Shown: positions 15,543 to 62,605 of the stretch, one piece after another | Numbering within the stretch: the first letter of the stretch is position 1 | Layout of the letters: every line of letters starts with the position of its first letter | Assembly: GCF_030253575.1 (NCBI RefSeq) | Contig: NC_080557.1 | Span: 17,867,501 to 17,931,500, forward strand | Source of the DNA: Rhododendron vialii | Taxonomy: Eukaryota > Streptophyta > Magnoliopsida > Ericales > Ericaceae | Direction: 5' to 3' | DNA: 64,000 bases | Notes under the pieces: generated by a model | Databases searched by the model: none | What the model saw: only the letters and a program-made list of their open reading frames with translations | What the model was told of the DNA's origin: nothing | Translations under genes and position numbers: made by a program

Positions 15543-15982
15543 TTAGGGGGTGTTCCAGTTTTGCTTCCGTTTTCCAAAGCAACTTTTGGTGTAATGAACA
15601 GTACCAAAACCGAATGGGCGTTCCACTTTCTTCCAAACGGTTGTTCCTTTTTAAAATGTTTATAGCCGTAATGACCATATTGCCCCTTATAAATTCCCCA
15701 GACGGCCCTCCGTCTTCTTTCTCTCTTCGTTGCCGCACAGAGCAGACGCACGCCCTCCCTCCCTCTTCTTCCCCAGACGCCCTCCCTCTTCTTTCCCTCT
15801 TCGTTGACGCACAGAGCAGACGCGCAGACGCCCTCCCTCCCTTTTCTTCCCCAGACGCCCTCCCTCTTCTTTGACGCCCAGAGCAGACGCCCTATTTCAA
15901 ACCCTCACCTCACTCATTTTTTGTCTCGCCCAAACGAGTAGAGAGAGACTCAGAGAGATCTCTACTTGAACAAAAACAGACA

Positions 15983-17116
15983 ATGGGTAAGCATTTCTGG
16001 ATGTATTTTCCCCTGTTTGCAAATCTAGATTTGGTTTGTTTTTCCGCCTGTTCACCTAATATGCATAGATTTGCATAAATGGTATGAATGATTTCATTTT
16101 TTCTTCGTGCTTTGACGTGAAGCTGGAACCTCTTTTGGGTCTTGTTACTTTCATTGTGCGCTTCATATGGTACCGGATTTGGGTTGTTTTAGGGTTTGTT
16201 TTTTTTTCCCCTTTAGTTTGTGACTTGTCAGTATGAGTTCTTTTGGCTCTGATTAGTGGCGATGTTATCGAAGATCAATATGTATTAGAATGTTGATGCC
16301 CTTGGCTTTGTATACATATACATCTGAATTTTCGAACGTATCTGAATTCAAGTTCATACATTAGGAAAGTTTTTGTTTCTGTAAAGCTATGAATTTGAGC
16401 TGTTTATCATATGTTGCATCTTGATTCCGACAAGATGTATATATTGGTCCTGATCAAGGAAACACATATGATTTTGAAGTTGGAGGTGTTGAATAGCATA
16501 CATAAAGCAAATGATCTTACGGGTTAGGTAGTAATTTTTTCACTAAATCCCAGGGTGGGGTGAATCGCATTCTAATTCTACAACTATAGGTTCGGATTGT
16601 TGCTCATCCCTAGCTTCCATACCTTGTTAGTCATTGCTTTTGAGTAGTTGGGTTTTGCATATTGATATGCTCAAGCTCATGGAAACAAGAAATATTCAGA
16701 TAGTACAGCACCATGTATATGCTGATCTACGGTTATAAAACATTTTGGTCTGACATCTGTTAAGTAAATTTGGTTTTTGTTTTGGGAATAATGTTAGGGG
16801 CTTACGCTTACTTTTCGGAGATATGGAGGAAGAAGCAATCAGATTTGATGAGGTGTCTGCTGAGGTGGAGGTGCTGGGAATATCGCCTGCTTCCTTCCAT
16901 CTTGCGTGTCAGACACCCTACTCATCCTGATAAAGCCAACAGATTGGGTTACAAGGCCAAGCAGGTATATGATGTGTTTTGATGTTCGCGTCCGATGTTT
17001 TCCGTTAACTCTTGTTAGTTATTTTAGTTTGTGGTTTTGCTGTTTGTTTTTTGTGGTGAGTTATTTCTTTATAAAAACACACCAAAAAAGAAGGCAAGGG
17101 CATAGCCTTCTTTTGT

Positions 17117-17148
<32 letters not shown>

Positions 17149-17850
17149 AGGGGGGTGTTCAAGCCTAAGGGGATAGCCTTGAACCCCATTGACACCAACA
17201 ATGAACAGATTGGTCATTTTCAGGCTTTAAATTTAATATGTGATTGTATCAAATATGGTGGTGGTCTACTTTCTACAATGCCTGTACCGGCTGTACGTGT
17301 CCTCTTAAGTATGTTTTGTTTTTAATTCTAATTCCTCCAGCTTTAGTGTACGTGGAATGCTTTATATGCCTGTACATATCTGATACACTCAAGTCTTACA
17401 TGTTTGCTCCAAAAGTTTGTGAGACAAAGTGACAAACTTGTATGTTGTACGACATTTTTGCGGAGCGTGTGGTAGTTTTTTTAATGCTTTACAGTTAAAG
17501 CAATGTCAACTTAATTGTGGTAATTGGTATTTCATGGTTCAAGCCGGCGTGGATTTTTCAGGTTCTCTTTGGAAGGATCTAAATATTCAGGCTCATGAAG
17601 TACATAGACCGTCTGACAAGCCTTTCATCTGAATTTCATTAGAAACCCAATTTTCCCTTGGCAAAAACGGGTGCTGATGGGGACTAGGGTGCTATATTCT
17701 TCCTTCTTTTTCTGGTGTTTTGAAACACTTCTTGTATGGCTACCGAAAGTAATTCTTTATTTAGGGCTATGTGATTTACCATGTCCGTGTAAGTCGTGGA
17801 GGGCGAAAGCGACCAGTTCCCAAGGTTCTCAACTCATAGTGGCTCAATGA
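15983..17850 (+). pseudogene. RPL15: RPL15 (ribosomal protein eL15) gene fragment with introns
   Basis: Exon 1 is ATG G (15983-15986) followed by GTAAGC. Exon 2 (16798-16964) encodes [16 protein letters not shown], then [13 protein letters not shown] and RLGYKAKQ, and ends at a GTATAT donor. Exon 3 (from 17765, after TTTAG) encodes GYVIYHVRVSRGGRKRPVPK. The exon 1 split after ATGG is, as I recall, the arrangement in plant RPL15 genes. After RPVPK the sequence jumps to VLNS-stop-WLNE, matching the later VLNSYWLNE segment, so about 50 residues are deleted and a stop is present. The C-terminal third is not found. Retained introns show it was copied as DNA, not as a retrocopy. It lies inside the Harbinger termini, and a pyrimidine-rich 5' leader is retained upstream. 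eL15 is a large-subunit ribosomal protein; this copy cannot make it. Confidence 0.8.
17120..17155. repeat. Poly-T/poly-G tract
   Basis: A T run is followed by an uninterrupted G run of about 18 bases in the second intron of the RPL15 fragment. The length may be unreliable in assembled sequence. Confidence 0.8.
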
Positions 17851-18521
17851 GGTTTGTACGAGAATCACTTGTGATTTCAGAAGGGATATGGCTTCATCCT
17901 AGAAGCCAGATGTGTTCGCCTACCGAACACTATTGAATGCTTGATTAAGGAGAGTGAGGCCTCTGGGGAATATATTCCTGTTGCGGGAGTGTAGTTGTGA
18001 TACAGGCTTCAAAGAAGCAAAAAAAACTAGGCATTCATGTACATTTTAGTGGGAGATTGTTCAGTAGATAGGCAAAGAATGTATCAACCTAATTCGGAGA
18101 TGGTTTCCAAGCCTATCTCCATGGATGGTTTATTCAGAGACATTTTTTCCATGGTTTTATCTTAGTTGTTACCACATTTGAGGCTTTTAACCACATTTGA
18201 GGTACTAATTTCTGTGATTTCGCGTAATGAACAACACCTTTTTCGCGCAATGAACAGTACTATACATAAGTTGTTTCTGCTAAAACGCAAAAAATCATTA
18301 CAGAACGTTTGGAATCCATCACTTTCTATGCAGTGTGTGCAGACGGAAACCGATAATAGTAGGGCGTCGGCTCCGGTGGACCAAATGTATTTCAAAGGAT
18401 TGAGTAGGAAGCAGGGAAAAAAATTTGCTTGACCATACCATGAATTTTTCAATAGTACAAACGATAGAATAACCCAAGTACAGGAGTGCTCTCCAGGAAA
18501 AGGGAATTAACACTCCTCAGG

Positions 18522-20626
18522 TCAATTTCTTCGTCGACGTTGTGGTTGTTCAGCACTTGCCCGATCGTTGTTCAAGGCTGTCATTATGCCGTGCCGCACG
18601 ACTTCCATGTCCAAAGTATTTGCAGACTGAGGATATAGGTAACCTTCAGTGTCCTCCTGCGCCGCATACGTGGGATCAATGTCTGGCAGATCCTGGAACA
18701 CGTACCTCTCGTCCGTCCAGATCGCTTCTTCCAATTCGTCATCGTGTATAGAATTCCGTATAATGTAGTTGTGTATTGCCATGGAAGCAATAACAAACAG
18801 CTTATGAATGCGAAGTGGATAAGTTGAGCTCTCCTTCATCATTCTCCACCGACTTTTCCACACCCCAAATGTCCGCTCAATTGCAGAACGAAGTGATGAG
18901 TGCTACCTATTAAAATATTCGTACGGATCCATATGCCGTTTTCGTGAACGCCTAAAGTCTTCTAGGTGGTACGTGTAGCCTTTGTATGGTGCGAGATATC
19001 CGTCGCTATTTGGATAGCCACTGTCCACCAAGTAGTATTTACCTGAATATGGCATGACCTTATTTCAAAGACGACACATCAAATGCCTACTGATGGGCAG
19101 AGCATGAGTTGGGGCTAATCACGTGTAAATATAATCAAAGCATTACTTGGTGGTAATTGTGCATTTCACAAAAAAATGTTAGGAAAAAAACTTGTAAATC
19201 TGGGACAACAACATTACCGTTTGGCGGATGGGGAAACATATTTTTGCCCCTGCCGTAAACACATTCTCTGAATACGTGGTAATCGTGCATCGATCCCTCC
19301 TATCCAGCTGAGGCAAATGTGAAGCAGAGATCAAAATCGCAAATGGCTATTATGTTCATCGTGTGGCCACCCTTGCGACCAAAATATTTTGTGGCATCTT
19401 TCGGCGGCGGGTTGCAAAATACATGCGTACCATCCATCGCCCCAATGCAATCCTGGGAATGATGTACATAACACATTAGTATACTGGGGTGACGTCAAAT
19501 ACTATATGGTTTTTTTTCTTAACATTACCAAAGTACGGCAAATTAATATATAGCCTTCTAACTTACCATGAAATGTCTATACTGAGGTCTATGTGACAAG
19601 TAAGAATGTGGGTGATTATCGCGCGGTTGAATCTCTTCTTTGGCCATACGCGTCACACAAACCAATACTTTATTGATTTGCCTTGAACAGGTAGCCTGCC
19701 CATGGTTTAATAACTCCCCCACGAGTTTTATGGAGCATCCACGCAATATGCATAAAAACATTGTGAGGCTCTCAAAAATTCCGATTGCATGTCTTCGTAT
19801 TGTGTGGAAGCCGTATTTGAAAACCAATTCCTCGCATAGCTTCACGAAAACTTCGCTTGTCATGGAGAAGTTCTCAGGACACCTTCTAGCATTTGGGCAA
19901 GTTAAGACTGACATCACCCAATCAAAACCGTTGTGTGTAGACGTATGGTACGGTATCCTCACAATCTCAACTGGGACGTATTGAAGTGCATGATTCTTAA
20001 GCATTTCAAGATATTGCACATCTTTCTCGTAGACAGCGTGTGCGACATGTTCAGGAACATCATCTTCATCTTCAAGGAACAAACTTTCGTCGGTTTCCAT
20101 GGGATCCTCCTCTTCCGTTTCACTTGCACCATATTCACCCCCATCTTCGGTACCTTCATTCTGAAACCCACCGCACTAATTGGACGAACTCCCGTGGCCA
20201 GTCCCACCGTAACGACTCCCATATTCAGTCTTTTCATTACAAAAGAGACCTACGTTTGACGTACTCCACAATGGAGCTCCACTACCAGCTCCTGACCAAA
20301 GAGAAGTTTGGTTGTCGTGAGGCATGGGAGAAGGTCTTACGGGGGCTTGCCCTCATGCCCCTCCCACGTCCAACGCTCGGTGACAACATGCTAGTATGTG
20401 TATGTTGTGAGGACTGCAAGAAGTTGGCTTCTTGTGCAGCCTGGTCGAAGTTTGGCTGGTCATAATAATGGGAGAAGTGTGGTTGTTCATAAGACTGCAA
20501 TAATTGTCGTCACGGTGAAACCTGTGAGAAGTTTTGCGAGAAGTTTTGCTCTTCTGAAGGCTGCAAGATGGCTTTGCGGGGGGTTGACCTAATTCCCTTA
20601 CCACGTCCACCTCCCGGTGACGACAT
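18522..20626 (-). pseudogene. PIF/Harbinger transposase (DDE_4, HARBI1/ALP1-like), broken
   Basis: The start is MSSPGGGRGKGIRSTPRK (ATG at 20626), a Gly/Ser/Gln-rich N-terminus containing an internal duplicate (MLSPSVGRGRGMRASPRK). METDESLFLEDEDD follows, then the helical region RIPYHTSTHNGFDWVMSVL, FESLTMFLCILRGCS and NHGQATCSRQINKVL (20100-19558). A GTAAGT-AG intron precedes the catalytic part: DCIGAMDGTHVFCNPPPKDA (first D, near 19430), YYLVDSGYPNSDGYLAPYKG (second D, near 19030), SAIERTFGVWKSRWRMM (E, near 18880), then LFVIASMAIHNYI and a C-terminal QRRRRN. All three DDE acidic residues can be read, but frameshifts and stops split the frame, especially before 20100 and around 18.9-19.3 kb, so it is probably inactive. 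It is transcribed away from the right terminus. Confidence 0.85.
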
Positions 20627-20963
20627 GCTTTGGAAAAAAACAACATAGTTGTTTAGGTACAAAAGTTCAGATTACAATAATGTGCCCGAACACATTTACA
20701 TAACTAGCAAACCCATGCATTCATCTGAAACACAGTAGAAGTCCCAAATATGACATCGATTTCTACAATATTACAAGGTCTTATGCAGTACGAGTATTAC
20801 AAAAAAACGTACATAGGAAAACACATAGTACAAGTGGGTTTGGATTACAAAAGTGGAGTTAACTTAATTCTTGTCTTTCATTTTAAAATTTAGTGCATAT
20901 TTGAACGCATTTGCATGGCTAAAGACTTTCGTTAAGTTAACTTTAACTTTTTAATCCAAACTT

Positions 20964-21667
20964 TTACAATGGCATACGCAGTAGGGCAACAAGTAGTAGG
21001 ACACAAATTACAATTCCAATAAGCATTAAGGTCCGGACGGCATTTTCTAAAGCTAACATGCATTGACTTAAGTTCTGGCCGTTGAAGTTGTAAGCTTCGG
21101 ATGACTTCGTGAAATGGAATGACCTATCATCTTGAGAATGGGCGACATTCGGAATACTTTCATTGCACCAACCATTCCACTCCCGGCAAGGCTACTCAGA
21201 AAATAAACAAATAAAAGGTCACAACAAAGATTGTTTAAGGGGGTGTTCCGCTTTTTAAAAAAAGTAACTTTTAGAAAAAGAAGGCAATTTTAAGCTCAAA
21301 AATCATGTTTACGTAAATAATTTTCCTACAATGGTGAACTTGTTTGATAGATCTCATTGAAATCTTTTAAATGGTGCAAAAAAATTAAAAAATTATTTTC
21401 CATTTTTATTATATTTGAGCTTTAAATGACCCTTTTTTTTTTCTTCTAAAAGTTCCTTTTTTGAGAAAGTGGAACACCCTTTAAATCATTTTCCTAAGTG
21501 AAGGTCACAAGAAGTGAGAGGCTTACAGGGTCACCAGGGCAGTCATAGTACCACTAGCCAGGGTGCTTTGCGCGGGAGCCAGATTTTCTTGGAATGTAAG
21601 GACCAACTCCATAAATGCATAGCCTTGTGGGCCATGTAGAGGTGGCATTGGACGCAGCGGAAGCCAT
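20964..21667 (-). pseudogene. GRF-type zinc finger + membrane-anchor ORF carried by the Harbinger element
   Basis: Two exons on the minus strand. Exon 1 (21667-21527) starts MASAASNATSTWPTRLCIYG and contains KHPG-stop-WYYDCPGDP, ending at GTAAGC. Exon 2 (21191-20964) begins PCREWNGWCNES and ends with a hydrophobic segment, TLMLIGIVICVLLLVALL, before the stop. The pattern C-x-x-G, then NPGRRFY-C replaced here by HPG-stop-WYYDC, then C-x-x-W fits the GRF zinc finger of plant At4g04775-like proteins, which also often end in a membrane helix. Joined, the exons give 122 residues with one in-frame stop. A related Harbinger MITE sits in its intron. Its position upstream of and parallel to the transposase suggests an accessory gene of the transposon, but capture from the host is possible. 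Confidence 0.6.
21238..21480. mobile_element. Harbinger-type MITE, 243 bp, TTA target duplication
   Basis: Ends AGGGGGTGTTCCGCTTTT and AAAGTGGAACACCCT are inverted repeats, flanked by TTA at 21235-21237 and 21481-21483. The termini match those of the surrounding 8.1-kb element, so it is a non-autonomous relative inserted into the intron of the GRF ORF. The core is AT-rich with a polypyrimidine stretch. A similar core occurs inverted at about 63025-63190. Confidence 0.85.
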
Positions 21668-23290
21668 GTGGAGTGATTGGGAAATTTGTTATGACTCTAA
21701 TATGGAAAATAGGTTGTGGACAATTAGAATGTTGGGGTAACAATATGGTAATTTTAAGTTCTCTATCCTCGTACTAGACAAATGCAGGATAAGGAACGCT
21801 CGGTGACACATTGAAACCGGACTAAGAAAATGACATGATAACAATTTCGAACCAATAACAAAAACCAAATGAAATTAATGCAGAGGAAATAGCAGGAAGT
21901 TGAGTTGTCTAAGACTACATTGTTCAAATTATACTGACTTGCAGACTAGTCCCAAACAACTCGCATTTGCTAAATGATGAGATATTGCAGTATGAGAGAC
22001 ATTAGATTCCCTAAAAAATCTAATTGTAGACTACTAAAACAGTACATATCTATGTAAACTGTTCTTTGTGAAAAGAACGCACCCTTAGAGCATCTCCAAT
22101 AGACTGAATGACATCCTAAGCAAATTATGTTGTTTAGTACGTAGTCACGTTTGTAGGACGACTTAACCTAAGGTCAATAGTCGTACGTTTGAGACCGTAG
22201 GCTTAATAACGTATAAATTACCAGCATAGTGACTTGCAAAAAGATTACCACTATTAAAAATATTCTTCATTCCAAAATATGGGAGGTCACCAACATAATC
22301 AATGTCTTTGTCAATATATCAATTATTAACACAGATGACGGAGGCTTCAAAAGCTATAATACTTACCTCCAGCTAACAAATATGGCTTCATATGTTGTCA
22401 AATGCAGAGGAAATAACACGCAGATTGACATCTATGGACAATGCAGGATTGATATGCAAGTGTGACTAATATGAACGAGTTCTTCTCTTTGTCAGTAGGT
22501 GTCATAATGCTTGTCAATGCAATGATTCTATAAGAAGTATCTTGATGTGCAGAAAGGGAAGTTAATATCTCAAAAGGTCCTTCCACATGGACTCTGGATG
22601 ACCAAGTACATGTTGCTTTTCATAAGATGGCAGTACCCATGAAAAAGTATAAACTACATTTCAATCCCATGACTTTCATACGCAACATTTGGAGGAAAAT
22701 GAAAAAAAAAAGAAAAAAGAACAAGCAACAAGTAATCAATTACATGAACCAGTTTGAGGGAAAGATGGAGTTGTAGACAAATGAAAATCAAGCTAACCAT
22801 CTGCTAATTACTTCAACAACCAAAACATGCAATACAAACTGGCAGTAAAACCACCGACATCCCAATCCAAATCAGCTGGAAAATCGAAATAAGAACCACC
22901 GGCCACCGACATCCAAAATTCACGAAATCAAAACCACCGCCAAACTCTATTGATTTTAACTTCTATTTGGGTACACTAAAGATCCACATTGAAAATAAAA
23001 CCCAGACGGAGCAATATGAAAACTTTTGAATCAAACGCACACAATATATGAAAATCCAGCATCAAAACCCAATTGGAGTAATCTGAAAACAGTGCGAGAT
23101 TCCGGCCACATTCCTCGCCGTCGGTGCCGGAAAACCCAAAAATCGTTACACCAGACGAAGAAGGCAAGAGAGGGACGGGTAACCTTTCTTACCTTCGCCG
23201 GACGCAAACGACGGCGACAAGGCCGTAAAAAACACAGATCTAATGCTTGTGAAGACAAGGGGAAAGAGATAGAGAGAGGGGAACTCACTT
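21668..23290. other. 5' flank of Harbinger genes; no further ORF seen
   Basis: Between the GRF ORF and the right terminus I see no protein domain. On the minus strand the outer part (23290-23480) is CT/CG-rich, like a plant 5' leader, and contains possible splice donors (GTGAG near 23285), so the element's promoter and a leader exon may lie here. Confidence 0.4.
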
Positions 23291-23647
23291 GGAGCGAGTG
23301 CTACAGTCGTCCGGCAGGACCACCGAGCTACAGTAGCGGCTGCTACGAGTTAAGGCCCGTTCCGACTTCTGGAGAGGGGGAGAGAGAGGGCGGCGAGGGG
23401 GAGAGGGACGGGGACTTCTGGCTGTGGAGACGAGGGAGGGCAGCAGTAGCGGCTCGGGTTTTTCTGTTGTGAACGTAGACTGAAGCCCTGGGAGAAAAAA
23501 ATGGGGCAAGGACAGTATGGTCATTTCACTCGCGGACAGTGGGGAACTTCGACCAAAACGAAGTCGTTTTGGCCGAACATTTTTCAAAAAAAAAGGAAGG
23601 CTCGAGATCTGGAATCACCCTTCTTTTTGGACCAAAAAAAACCCACT

Positions 23648-23693
23648 TTTTCTAAAACTGGAACGACCCCTTAACTAAAACTGGAACGACCCC
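23648..23693. repeat. 23-bp tandem duplication of the Harbinger right terminus
   Basis: The terminal segment carrying AAAACTGGAACGACCCC followed by TTAACT occurs twice in direct succession, each copy ending ...GACCCC followed by TTA. Each copy could serve as the transposon end. Confidence 0.85.
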
Positions 23694-23696
23694 TTA

Positions 23697-25345
23697 ACGC
23701 AATGTTAACACCGTTACACGGTTAACCCAGATTTTGGTGGGGAGGGGGACTGTCTCTATCGTCAGCGGAAATCAGGGAGCGTTGTGGAATTTCAAAAACC
23801 CAGGAGAGGTATCTGTATCTGTATCTGTATTTTGTTAAAAACCTCAGAGGAGGTCGGAGAAATTGGCCCGAAACAAAAGTCTCTCGGATCCGGATCCGGA
23901 TCCTCAACCTTATACTGATAGATAGTGAGAGAAGCCAGGAATTCGCGGTGGCCTTACCTCGCGGCGAAGAACACTGTCTTGTCCATGTAAAACCCTAACC
24001 CTCTTTCTATTTTCTTGTGCTATCTACATATACAGCAATTTTCGAACACATTTATTTTTATTCAAGCTACAATTATAATCTTTGTCTGTATTAGCTATAT
24101 CTCATCTGACTTGGTTTAATTCTTTCAAACTCTTGCTTACTGTCATTTTACTCTAAATTTATAGCATATGATGTGTGTATCCACATTTATCTGTGTCCTA
24201 TGTTAATAATTGGACTCTGATTTTTCCCCCTTTCTTAGTGTTTTTGGATTTTAATTTTGTTAAAGGACACTCAGATGAAACAGACAGATCCAGTTATGGA
24301 TTCATTACAGGCTTACAGCTGAAGCACTGGATTATGAGACCCATCTGTGTTTTTTATTGGCAAGTTAGGGAGACTCAAACTTCAGGTTTTGTATTGGGTG
24401 AATGTGTCCTGAGCGAGTGGGCGCAGTCTTCTAAAACATGTGTTGTTTTCCCCAGCATGGTCAATAGAGCTCAATCCAAAAAGCTTGCTATTGGTGTGAG
24501 GTTGGCCTCTCGCGCTTAAGCATATCACTTTCATACCCAAGTGATGTGATACTACTTGGTAGTCCGATTGGACTTCGTTTAGTAGTCTGAAAAATCGCAT
24601 AGATTCTAGTTTGGTGATTTCTTTTGAAAGAAGCAGGAGGCAGAATCATTTTTTTTTTATCTGGTAACATAAACGTTTGAAGTGGTAAAATTGTGTTCCA
24701 ATTCTGTGTGTCATGGATGCTGGCTGCTAGTTTTTGTATACTTAATTAGAATGAAGCATATCTACGTACTCAAGAGAAGTTCTGGCTACAGCTTTGGATT
24801 GCTTTTCATTGCATTGATGCTTCACTACTTGATGGGGTAGCCGTTGATTGGTTGGACTGTAGTCGTCTGCTTTGGAAGCCTCAAGTAAATCCCATGGGCC
24901 TAATGCGTAGAATTTAGTCATTTTGGTCCAATAAGTGTCTTTGGTAATTTTGTCATTTTACTTATTAGCAATAGGAGGCATTTTTTATATTTAATTAGGT
25001 TATTTTTAATGTTTCCTTTTCTTTTCCGTTAGGGTTATGAGTCTATAAATAAGGTGTTCAACGATGTAATCGAGACTTTGATTAATGGGAATTTGAGAAT
25101 TAGGGTTTTGACCCTTGTGTGTGCCCCTCTCCCCTTCTTCTTTTTCTTGTCCGTCATCACACATGGTGGTGCTTGTGGTCAGGTAACGATCAAATATCCT
25201 TCATAATTTATACAGTGCACAAGACACGAAGTTGATAAACCATGCATGCGATACGTTTTATCTCTGTATCTGAGGTTTCAATTTCTCATTTGTGATGTAG
25301 TTTCATTTAATGGATAGGTACATAAAAGAGCAGGCTAGTTAGGGG
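23697..25345 (+). promoter_or_regulatory. Upstream region of the dihydrouridine synthase gene
   Basis: No protein-coding exon is recognised. Around 23940-23990 there is a leader-like GC-rich segment followed by GTAAAACCCTAACCC, which could be the end of a 5' non-coding exon. A TATA-like TCTATAAATAAGG lies at about 25042, some 300 bp before the ATG. The segment 24830-25200 resembles a copia-type LTR. Which promoter is used cannot be decided from sequence. Confidence 0.35.
24830..25200 (+). mobile_element. Possible LTR-like segment
   Basis: Composition and layout (TGATGGGG start, a TCTATAAATAAGG TATA-like box, then ATTAGGGTTTTGACCC and a C/T-rich stretch) resemble short copia-type LTRs. No partner LTR, clear end or target duplication was found. 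Weak call. Confidence 0.25.
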
Positions 25346-60632: not shown

Positions 60633-61007
60633 ATATTTCAATATTTTTATCTAATTAATGTATTTAAATTGATTTTTAATTAATCTATTATCTTAGAATT
60701 AATTAATAAGAGCCCAGAAAATTTTCCTTTTAAATTATTTTAAAACTCTTACTTTATTATTGACATTGTGACCATACAAGATTAAGGGCAACGGCCCATT
60801 CATAAAAAGTTCCGTGATTTCATTATCTATTTATTGTTTAATTATTATTGATTAATTGCATATTGTGCCGATACTTGACTTTGATGCTAGAGTGGACCCT
60901 AGAGACATGAGGTGGTATTGCGAAATAGAATTCATCTAGACGATGCTAGATAATGGATAGACTGGAAAGTTTTTATTTTTAGATTGGCTGCAGGCGTGAT
61001 TTTAAAT

Positions 61008-61510
61008 TATGTGATGAAAATGAAACTGGCGGGTGTCCAGTGATAAAAACACCAGTGATAAATTATGTGATGAAAATAAAACTGGTGGGTGTCCAGTGAT
61101 AAAAACACCAGTGATAAATTGTGTGATGAAAATAAAACTGGCAGGTGTCCAATGATAAATTGTGTGATGAAAATAAAACTGGCGGGTGTCCAGTGATAAA
61201 AACACCAGTGATAAATTGATAGACTGGCGGGTGTCCAGTGATGAAAATAAAACTGGTGGGTGTCCAGTGATAAGACACCTGAGATTTGTGATGAAAATAA
61301 AATTGGCGGGTGTCCAGTGATAAAACACCTGTGATAAATTGATGAAAATAAAACTGATGGGTGTCCAGTGATAAAACACCTGTGATAAATTGATGAAAAT
61401 AAAACTGATGGGTGTCCAGTGATAAAACACCTGTGATAAATTGATGAAAATAAAACTGGCGGGTGTCCAGTGATAAATTGATAGACTGGCGGGTGTCCAG
61501 TGATGGTTGT
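61008..61510. repeat. Minisatellite array (inverted, second LTR copy)
   Basis: Tandem units built on CTGGCGGGTGTCCAGTGATAA and GATGAAAATAAAA. Compared with the left copy the units here are more uniform among themselves and have a different spacer, suggesting separate expansion. Confidence 0.88.
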
Positions 61511-62605
61511 GAAGTGATTTGTGAGGTGGTATATAAGATAGGCGAACCCTAGTTGTGATTCAGGCATGATACGCTTTCCCCTTGTTGTAGTTATTGGGAT
61601 GCATACTCGGTAAATAACTTAGGTGCATCTGCGACAGCAAAGGGAAGTGATCTCATGGGACCGAGCATAGCTAACGGTTGGGGAAGAAAGATCTCGCAGA
61701 GAGATCTTAGATTTTACATTAGGTTATGGATAGTAATGAATTGACTCATGTGGAGAATATTTGTTTGGCTTCTTCGATTCAATATTATCTTGTTATCTAC
61801 TAATTGTAAAGTAAGAGGGGTGGTTGGGTTGGATTATTCTACTGGGTGATTTATCACTCACGGATACGTCTATATCCTAGCCAATCGGTTGCTTCGGCGA
61901 TCAATTTGCCAGTGGGCGCAGGATTCGATGGAGAGGATTCAAAGATGTTGCAGTTCAACTCGGAAAGAATATCAGGAACGAAGATCGAGTATGTTTCGGA
62001 TTTGTATCAAGCCTAGAGTCAGCTCTGAAATTAATGTATTTTGAATCAGTAAATTTATCTTGTGACTGTAATAGCTAAACTTTATTTTGGAAAATTATAT
62101 TTATTTAGTAAATTTTCTTAAAATTTTATTTTATTTTGCTTCCGGAAAGTCGAGGCGTTAAAAACCATAAAAACGAAATCCATCTTTCTTTCTTTTTAAA
62201 AATAAAAACAACAAAATTCATCTTTCTTTTTGGGCATATCAATTTGTCATACTCCAACGACACTCCTCTCACATACATGTAGATTTTTAGCGGGTCTTTA
62301 GTATTTATTGTAAAATTCTCACATATGCATGTGAAAGAGTTGTAGTTGGGACCGGTGTGACACATTGATGTGTCCTTAGCATTTCATTCTCCCTCTGTAA
62401 CAAAATCCATGTACTGGTTTTTTGATGTATGAAGTTTACCTAATAGACAAAAGACTAAATTGACATGGGTAAAACTAGTTTACTCAAAGGTTAGAATGGG
62501 ATCCATCCAAATTGTTGAAAAAGAGAGTGAAGGAAACAACAGGTTGTTAGCATGTCATTTTGTTTCTCTGGAAAAAAAAAAGGCAAAACAATGCCTTGGC
62601 CGTGT

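What the first reader, a model, noticed from the sequence alone, without database searches (positions are those of the whole stretch)
15546..23693. Large Harbinger element carrying a GRF-zinc-finger/membrane ORF beside its transposase
Inverted ends, TTA duplication, DDE_4 transposase and a GRF + C-terminal membrane-helix ORF in the same direction are found in one 8.1-kb unit. Plant PIF/Harbinger elements are normally described with a Myb-like ORF1, which I do not see here. A GRF ORF in that place could be an alternative accessory gene or a captured one.
Basis: partly seen in the sequence, partly recalled or inferred. Interest (0 to 1): 0.7.

Follow-up and report, generated by a model that had tools for sequence, protein, structure and literature searches.

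The report
Plant jumping gene with third gene
The window holds a decayed plant Harbinger transposon whose small zinc-finger, hydrophobic-tailed gene turns out to be an inherited third gene, found beside the usual two in many related elements of the same genome, and not a replacement for one of them.

Summary
The 8.1-kb element is real: matching ends, TTA duplication, and a DDE_Tnp_4 transposase and a GRF zinc-finger/C-terminal-helix gene on the same strand. A relative on C13 (83-90% identical over the genes, related ends) has three genes in a row: GRF, Myb/SANT, transposase. The window copy lost the Myb domain by an internal deletion. The GRF gene recurs: of 165 Harbinger transposase loci examined, 29 have it upstream on the same strand, none downstream (0.22 expected); 29 of 43 in one clade, 0 of 122 outside. 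Where a Myb hit is also seen with GRF (21 loci), the order is always GRF, Myb, transposase. The protein keeps its Cys pattern and hydrophobic tail, and is under purifying selection between diverged loci (dN/dS 0.32-0.52). I read it as a conserved, though not universal, accessory gene of one plant Harbinger clade; five literature searches found no description. Its function (a membrane-anchored single-strand-DNA binder) is inferred.

The parts
15546..23693 (.). PIF/Harbinger element; right end shared with relatives is about 23670, followed by a 23-bp tandem duplication of the end
15543..15545 (.). left target-site duplication TTA
23694..23696 (.). right target-site duplication TTA (another TTA at 23671-23673 behind the inner copy of the end)
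15546..15562 (+). left terminal inverted repeat GGGGGTGTTCCAGTTTT
23654..23670 (-). right terminal inverted repeat (inner copy; second copy 23677-23693)
20964..21191 (-). GRF-tail gene, exon 2: last Cys residues (PCREWNGWC) and C-terminal hydrophobic helix
21527..21667 (-). GRF-tail gene, exon 1 (MASAASNATS...); second motif Cys is Tyr and one in-frame TAG
21236..21480 (.). MITE nested in the GRF intron; the C13 copy has the uninterrupted site; 15 other places of 82-89% identity are listed in the genome
20301..20626 (-). remnant of the N-terminal part of the Myb/SANT gene (ORF1); its Myb domain is deleted
20299..20300 (.). deletion junction: about 3 kb present in the C13 copy (rest of the Myb gene, its second exon, transposase N-terminus) is missing here
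19567..20295 (-). transposase exon 1, N-terminus missing (one in-frame stop near 20176)
   Evidence: splice site read by eye
19218..19452 (-). transposase exon 2 (DCIGAMDGTH..., in-frame stop near 19300)
   Evidence: splice sites read by eye
18522..19042 (-). transposase exon 3 (end of DDE_Tnp_4, in-frame stop near 18903)
   Evidence: splice site read by eye
15889..17882 (+). captured ribosomal protein L15 (eL15) gene fragment with introns; coding pieces about 16810-16964 and 17765-17837 (read by eye)
17876..18193 (+). fragment 91% identical to C12:31786126-31786437; possibly also captured
22132..22848 (.). fragment 94% identical to C2:35789090-35789812; possibly also captured

Best explanation
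The window element is an internally deleted, mutated copy of a three-gene PIF/Harbinger transposon. The fuller unit, on one strand, reads: (1) a small protein with an N-terminal GRF zinc ribbon, a middle part (coiled-coil-like in some subtypes, by eye) and a C-terminal hydrophobic helix; (2) the usual Myb/SANT DNA-binding ORF1; (3) the usual DDE_Tnp_4 transposase. The GRF gene most likely entered this lineage before its three subclades split and has been inherited with the transposase, with losses. Mechanism: Myb protein and transposase cut and paste the element as in other Harbingers (inferred from the family). The GRF protein most likely acts as a tail-anchored accessory factor that binds single-stranded or forked DNA, or the transposition complex, at the nuclear envelope or ER membrane, aiding a step the other two proteins do not cover, such as handling of excision or repair intermediates. 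Shown: gene content, order, ends, 3-bp duplications, clade restriction in this genome, selection. Inferred: membrane insertion, ssDNA binding, any role in transposition. The confidence given is for gene content and inheritance; for the membrane/ssDNA role alone I would say 0.35. The window copy cannot make these proteins but kept its ends; its 96-98% sister 28 kb away has different flanking bases, which fits movement after the deletion and the RPL15 capture, with proteins supplied in trans.
For: C13 copy with related ends holds GRF, Myb (PF12776, E 3e-13) and transposase (PF13359, E 2.7e-28) in order. Five copies (L054, L055, L057, L058, L059) share their ends (GGGGGTGTTTGG...CCAAACACCCC; L057's right and L059's left end carry changes) with 3-bp AT-only duplications read by eye, GRF inside. 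29 of 165 listed transposase loci have GRF upstream on the same strand within 16 kb, 0 downstream, 0.22 expected by random placement, maximum 3 in 2000. With GRF places from the Pfam model alone, found without any Harbinger query: 17 of 51 upstream of a transposase on the same strand, 0 downstream, 1 opposite. GRF upstream of Myb in 21 of 21 loci with both hits. GRF and transposase identities rise together, Spearman 0.95 over 15 loci of subtype b, many of them near copies. One branch of the transposase tree (support 100/98) holds all 26 GRF-bearing rows. GRF dN/dS 0.37, 0.52, 0.32 with bootstrap fraction at or above 1 of 0.000, 0.0015, 0.009. Hydrophobic C-terminal 19-mer, mean 2.28-3.23, in all 15 sequences examined that reach the C-terminus. 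Profile of five GRFs hits NEIL3 GRF structures at 2.6e-13 and 5.9e-13, a domain reported to bind ssDNA and forked DNA (PMC9266487, passages).
Against: 14 of 43 clade loci show no GRF; of 26 with an upstream Myb hit, 5 lack it, and C3:24313212, with open Myb and transposase frames, has none recognisable in 2.2 kb: the gene may be dispensable, or supplied in trans. GRF evolves faster than Myb (0.11-0.21) and transposase (0.10-0.13), and most young or decayed pairs look neutral or faster (0.91, 1.00, 1.26, 1.74, 1.81; one at 0.39). 56 of 85 GRF places had no listed transposase within 20 kb. Within the tree the GRF label needs 8 changes and inner support is weak. No expression, localisation or binding data. 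The clade of 43 was set by identity (33) and by hand (10), so it is approximate.
Confidence: 0.85

Rival explanations
1. GRF is a host gene captured once by an ancestor of the clade and carried along without function, like the RPL15 piece.
For: Capture does happen in this element: RPL15 fragment. Young GRF pairs mostly look neutral, and 5 of 26 loci with Myb lack it.
Against: dN/dS below 1 between diverged loci with bootstrap support; Cys pattern and C-terminal helix kept across three subclades at 18-28% identity to the first row, one close row at 55%; by contrast C13 showed no match to the RPL15 block.
Confidence: 0.12
2. GRF replaces the Myb ORF1 as the DNA-binding partner.
For: The window copy has GRF and no Myb domain.
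Against: C13 and distant loci have both genes; the window copy keeps the Myb gene's N-terminal part, joined to the transposase by a deletion.
Confidence: 0.02
3. The GRF-tail gene serves against host silencing or controls expression, not the cut-and-paste step.
For: Absent from some copies and faster evolving; plant transposons with extra anti-silencing genes exist (recalled, VANDAL elements; no call).
Against: A C-terminal membrane helix is odd for a chromatin factor; no positive evidence either way. This rival is compatible with the three-gene reading and differs only on the role.
Confidence: 0.25
4. Two elements of different families are joined, and the transposase-GRF block was captured by a non-autonomous element.
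For: Short elements share only the ends; the RPL15 block shows that the ends can enclose foreign DNA.
Against: The C13 copy has related ends at both sides of the three genes (left 69% and right 79% identity) and TTT beside both ends (read by eye).
Confidence: 0.05

Closest known systems
PIF/Harbinger transposons (two-gene, Myb ORF1 + transposase)
   Same: DDE_Tnp_4 transposase, Myb/SANT ORF1, TIRs starting with G, 3-bp AT-only duplication
   Different: A third gene, GRF-tail, upstream of ORF1; six measured copies of 6.9-9.7 kb against a reported mean near 4.1 kb (PMC4482050, passages)
Master lineage (MtMaster, DcMaster; family MtPH-M)
   Same: orf1 lies before the transposase and the transposase has one or two introns (PMC2213677, passages)
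GRF zinc fingers of NEIL3 and APE2
   Same: The Cys pattern; profile hits 7omk and 7jl5, and weakly 5u6z at 0.056
   Different: Here the finger is in a 116-171-aa protein with a hydrophobic C-terminal tail; no nuclease or glycosylase domain was matched in the proteins scanned
Pack-TYPE elements (Pack-PIF)
   Same: A host gene piece (RPL15 with introns) lies between Harbinger ends; Pack-PIF reported in rice and maize (PMC8903248, passages)
   Different: This copy still carries remnants of its own genes

Membership tests
PIF/Harbinger | DDE_Tnp_4 transposase | tested here: met
   window; C13 protein, exons joined, E 2.7e-28
PIF/Harbinger | TIRs with a 3-bp TWA-type duplication | tested here: met
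   TTA in the window. By eye: L054 TTA, L059 TAA, L057 and L058 ATA, L055 AAA, C13 TTT; so 4 of these 6 copies (ATA, ATA, AAA, TTT) depart from strict TWA
PIF/Harbinger | Myb/SANT ORF1 | tested here: met
   Met in the family, deleted in the window copy
PIF/Harbinger | Only two genes | tested here: not met
   Third gene GRF-tail in 29 of 43 clade loci. Sources say 'most' (PMC4482050) or 'virtually all' (PMC2836001) have two genes, so this marks a variant and does not exclude membership
Master lineage (MtPH-M) | Transposase groups with MtMaster/DcMaster | not testable with these tools
   Reference proteins not held
GRF zinc finger | CxCG...C...C zinc ribbon over the Pfam cut-off | tested here: met
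   L054 40.6 and L056 40.0 bits against 25.9; L061 25.0 just under; C11 17.6 and C13 13.3 under. Window copy itself fails, decayed
Tail-anchored membrane protein | Single C-terminal helix inserted in a membrane | tested here: inconclusive
   Hydropathy only
Pack-TYPE | Host gene fragment between the TIRs | tested here: met
   RPL15, Pfam E 2.3e-30

The most novel reading that the evidence does not exclude
A tail-anchored GRF gene is a shared accessory module of unrelated plant DNA transposons: inherited in one Harbinger clade, and also carried by FAR1-type MULE elements. The basis for the second part is one locus, L045, where a GRF-tail gene of the same layout lies tail to tail with a MULE transposase (PF10551, E 1.1e-16; FAR1 match only 0.012, under its cut-off). 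No ends were sought there.
Probability: 0.35. Interest if true: 0.78.

Novelty: new variant of a known kind. Interest (0 to 1): 0.62.

Why it matters
Harbinger elements are described as having two proteins, both needed for movement. A third gene kept by selection in a clade, with a DNA-binding finger and a probable membrane anchor, points to an unknown step, place or control of transposition. It also suggests that some GRF zinc-finger genes listed as host genes in plants are transposon genes.

Tried and rejected
Rejected: GRF in place of Myb; the two ends from different elements; chance closeness of GRF and transposase. Pfam GRF_2 (PF23549) gave no match in this genome at E<=0.01. Synaptobrevin matches to the GRF protein (0.13, 0.0081) are under the cut-off and cover the hydrophobic tail, so I dropped them. 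The C6:26649153 copy has the second Myb exon and the transposase but no GRF or first Myb exon in 5.8 kb upstream; C11:14358377 has GRF alone in 9 kb: both are taken as broken copies. Other plant genomes cannot be searched with these tools. Genus: 13 contigs and 532.6 Mb fit Rhododendron by recall; one search looked up the name only, and identity was not tested.
Full report
WHAT IS THERE. The window lies at C1:17867501-17931500 of a 532.6-Mb assembly in 13 contigs. Between 15546 and 23693 lies an element with 17-18-nt inverted ends and a TTA duplication. The right end shared with relatives is about 23670; 23652-23674 is repeated exactly once more, and the inverted copy has this end once. Short relatives that keep only the two ends, for example C11:11182531-11183715, show that the ends belong together. 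On the minus strand come, from right to left, a GRF gene of two exons (21667-21527 and 21191-20964), the N-terminal remnant of a Myb gene (20626-20301) and a transposase in three exons (about 20295-18522; splice sites read by eye). On the plus strand the left third holds a piece of the ribosomal protein L15 gene with introns (Pfam Ribosomal_L15e, E 2.3e-30; 78 residues aligned to eL15), 88-92% like two places on C9.

STATE OF THIS COPY. It is dead as a source of protein. GRF has an in-frame TAG and a Cys-to-Tyr change; the transposase has three in-frame stops; the Myb domain is gone. Against the C13 copy, window 20299/20300 joins what C13 has about 3 kb apart, from 22284104 to 22287146-22287274. 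A MITE sits in the GRF intron at 21236-21480; C13 has that site without it. The sister copy at C1:17854226-17864342, inverted and 28 kb away, is 98% and 96% identical in two stretches, includes RPL15 and lacks the Myb domain too, is split by 1.9 kb of other DNA, and its match stops at the element's ends, so both arose after the deletion and the capture. Its left end is too changed to show a clean duplication.

THE THIRD GENE. The C13 copy (22280045-22289781) has related ends on both sides (69% left, 79% right), TTT beside both ends (by eye), gene stretches 83-90% identical to the window, and GRF, Myb/SANT (PF12776, 3e-13) and transposase (PF13359, 2.7e-28) in a row. Coordinates of the Pfam GRF model and of distant transposases fell close together, so I fetched nine such loci (L054-L062). 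The GRF, Myb, transposase order can be read in them, with some frames broken (first GRF exon of L062 and the GRF of L060, their Myb hits). Five of them are copies with the same ends in different flanks, 6.9-7.9 kb long, with 3-bp AT-only duplications as read by eye: L054 TTA, L055 AAA, L057 ATA, L058 ATA, L059 TAA. L059 has a disturbed left end and L057 a changed right end.

HOW GENERAL. I merged the transposase places (165 loci) and GRF places (91 loci; rows already covered within 800 bases were not added). Within 16 kb GRF lies upstream on the same strand of 29 of 165 transposases, downstream of 0, on the opposite strand upstream of 1 and downstream of 1; random placement gives 0.22, at most 3 in 2000 runs. 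A first count with fewer GRF places and 12 kb gave 25 of 165 upstream, 0 downstream, 2 opposite. Some GRF queries came from these elements, so I also counted the 51 hits of the Pfam model alone: 17 upstream on the same strand, 0 downstream, 1 opposite. By clade: 29 of 43 inside, 0 of 122 outside. The clade was set by identity of at least 55% (33 loci) or by hand from tree and neighbours (10 loci, 6 with GRF and 4 without), so the 43 is approximate. Of 26 clade loci with a Myb hit upstream on the same strand, 21 have GRF, each time upstream of Myb; 5 have none. The lists are lower bounds: the tool says that only the best candidates are scored, and both transposase lists stop at 150 rows.

TREE AND SELECTION. 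A tree of 41 transposase fragments (116 columns; of the outgroup rows tried, L001 gave no match and L004 was dropped as too distant) puts all 26 GRF-bearing rows and 10 without GRF in one branch with support 100/98; the other 5 rows have none. The GRF label needs 8 changes, with a shuffled mean of 12.4 and 0 of 500 shuffles as low. Inner support is weak (17 of 36 branches open), and the chosen outgroup was not one side of a branch. Across loci of subtype b, GRF and transposase identities rise together (Spearman 0.95, 15 loci, many near copies, typed by hand; the broken or split loci C2:34952228, C2:34701561, C4:31144187 and C9:11648560 were left out). GRF dN/dS is 0.37 (95% bootstrap 0.23-0.58) and 0.52 (0.33-0.80) between the L055 and L056 subfamilies and 0.32 (0.12-0.79) between L061 and L062; a further cross-subfamily pair gave 0.48. 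This is weaker than Myb (0.11-0.21) and transposase (0.10-0.13). Among young or decayed pairs it is near or above 1 (0.91, 1.00, 1.26, 1.74, 1.81), with one at 0.39. That fits selection while elements are active and decay afterwards.

WHAT THE PROTEIN LOOKS LIKE. Twelve invariant columns over five diverse sequences include five Cys (one row is a composite and one, L045, is not from a Harbinger). Hydrophobicity peaks within three residues of the C-terminus in all 15 sequences examined that reach it. The profile finds the GRF fingers of NEIL3 (2.6e-13) and, weakly, APE2 (0.056) among solved structures. [quoted passage not shown] A DNA-binding finger on a membrane tail suggests a factor at the nuclear envelope or ER. 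This is inference from sequence.

WHAT IS KNOWN. PMC2836001 (passages) says virtually all coding elements characterised then have two genes, both needed for transposition. PMC4482050 (passages) describes most autonomous PIF/Harbinger families with two ORFs, the second Myb/SANT; the word GRF does not occur in it. PMC2213677 (passages) describes a lineage with orf1 before the transposase, which the present clade resembles in layout. PMC8903248 (passages) reports Pack-PIF elements, the kind of capture seen for RPL15. Searches for GRF with Harbinger or plant transposons gave listings in which I saw no paper on the pair. Three listed papers that hold a GRF term were looked into by passages (PMC5413045, PMC6293580, PMC11099236): they name GRF zinc-finger genes in wheat, peanut and chickpea work without linking them to transposons. 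This covers open-licence papers only, and repeat databases were not searchable.

LIMITS. One genome only. No transcripts. The one I read (C3:24313212) has no GRF recognisable by eye in 2.2 kb next to its Myb domain, so the gene is not needed in each copy. C6:26649153 and C11:14358377 are broken copies. 56 of 85 GRF places had no listed Harbinger transposase within 20 kb; of these I inspected the flanks of two for other genes, and one of them, L045, lies beside a MULE transposase, which opens the wider question in the novel case.

Noticed in passing
window 15889-17882: Captured RPL15 (eL15) gene fragment with introns inside the element, about 90% like C9:38164880-38166911, whose own copy has an in-frame stop.
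   Followed up: partly
window 21236-21480: MITE nested in the GRF intron; its ends (GGGGGTGTTCC) resemble those of the host element, and the C13 copy has the uninterrupted site.
   Followed up: partly
L045 (C13:13667726-13670842): A GRF gene with C-terminal helix lies tail to tail with a MULE transposase, suggesting that GRF-tail genes ride in more than one transposon superfamily.
   Followed up: partly
window 23652-23698: Perfect 23-bp tandem duplication of the right end including TTA, single in the inverted sister copy.
   Followed up: partly
C1:17854226-17864342: 96-98% sister copy in inverted orientation 28 kb away, split by 1.9 kb of other DNA.
   Followed up: partly
window 22132-22848 and 17876-18193: Fragments 94% and 91% identical to C2:35789090 and C12:31786126, possibly further captured pieces.
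   Followed up: no
window 61002-61618: Long open frames made of an imperfect short repeat (reads like YHWTPASFIFI), probably a minisatellite.
   Followed up: no
genome-wide Myb/SANT and transposase lists: Some other Harbinger clades here carry Myb just downstream of the transposase (e.g. C6:9282852 and C6:9282123) or upstream without GRF (e.g. C3:10536064); none of the 122 listed loci outside the GRF clade had an upstream same-strand GRF.
   Followed up: partly
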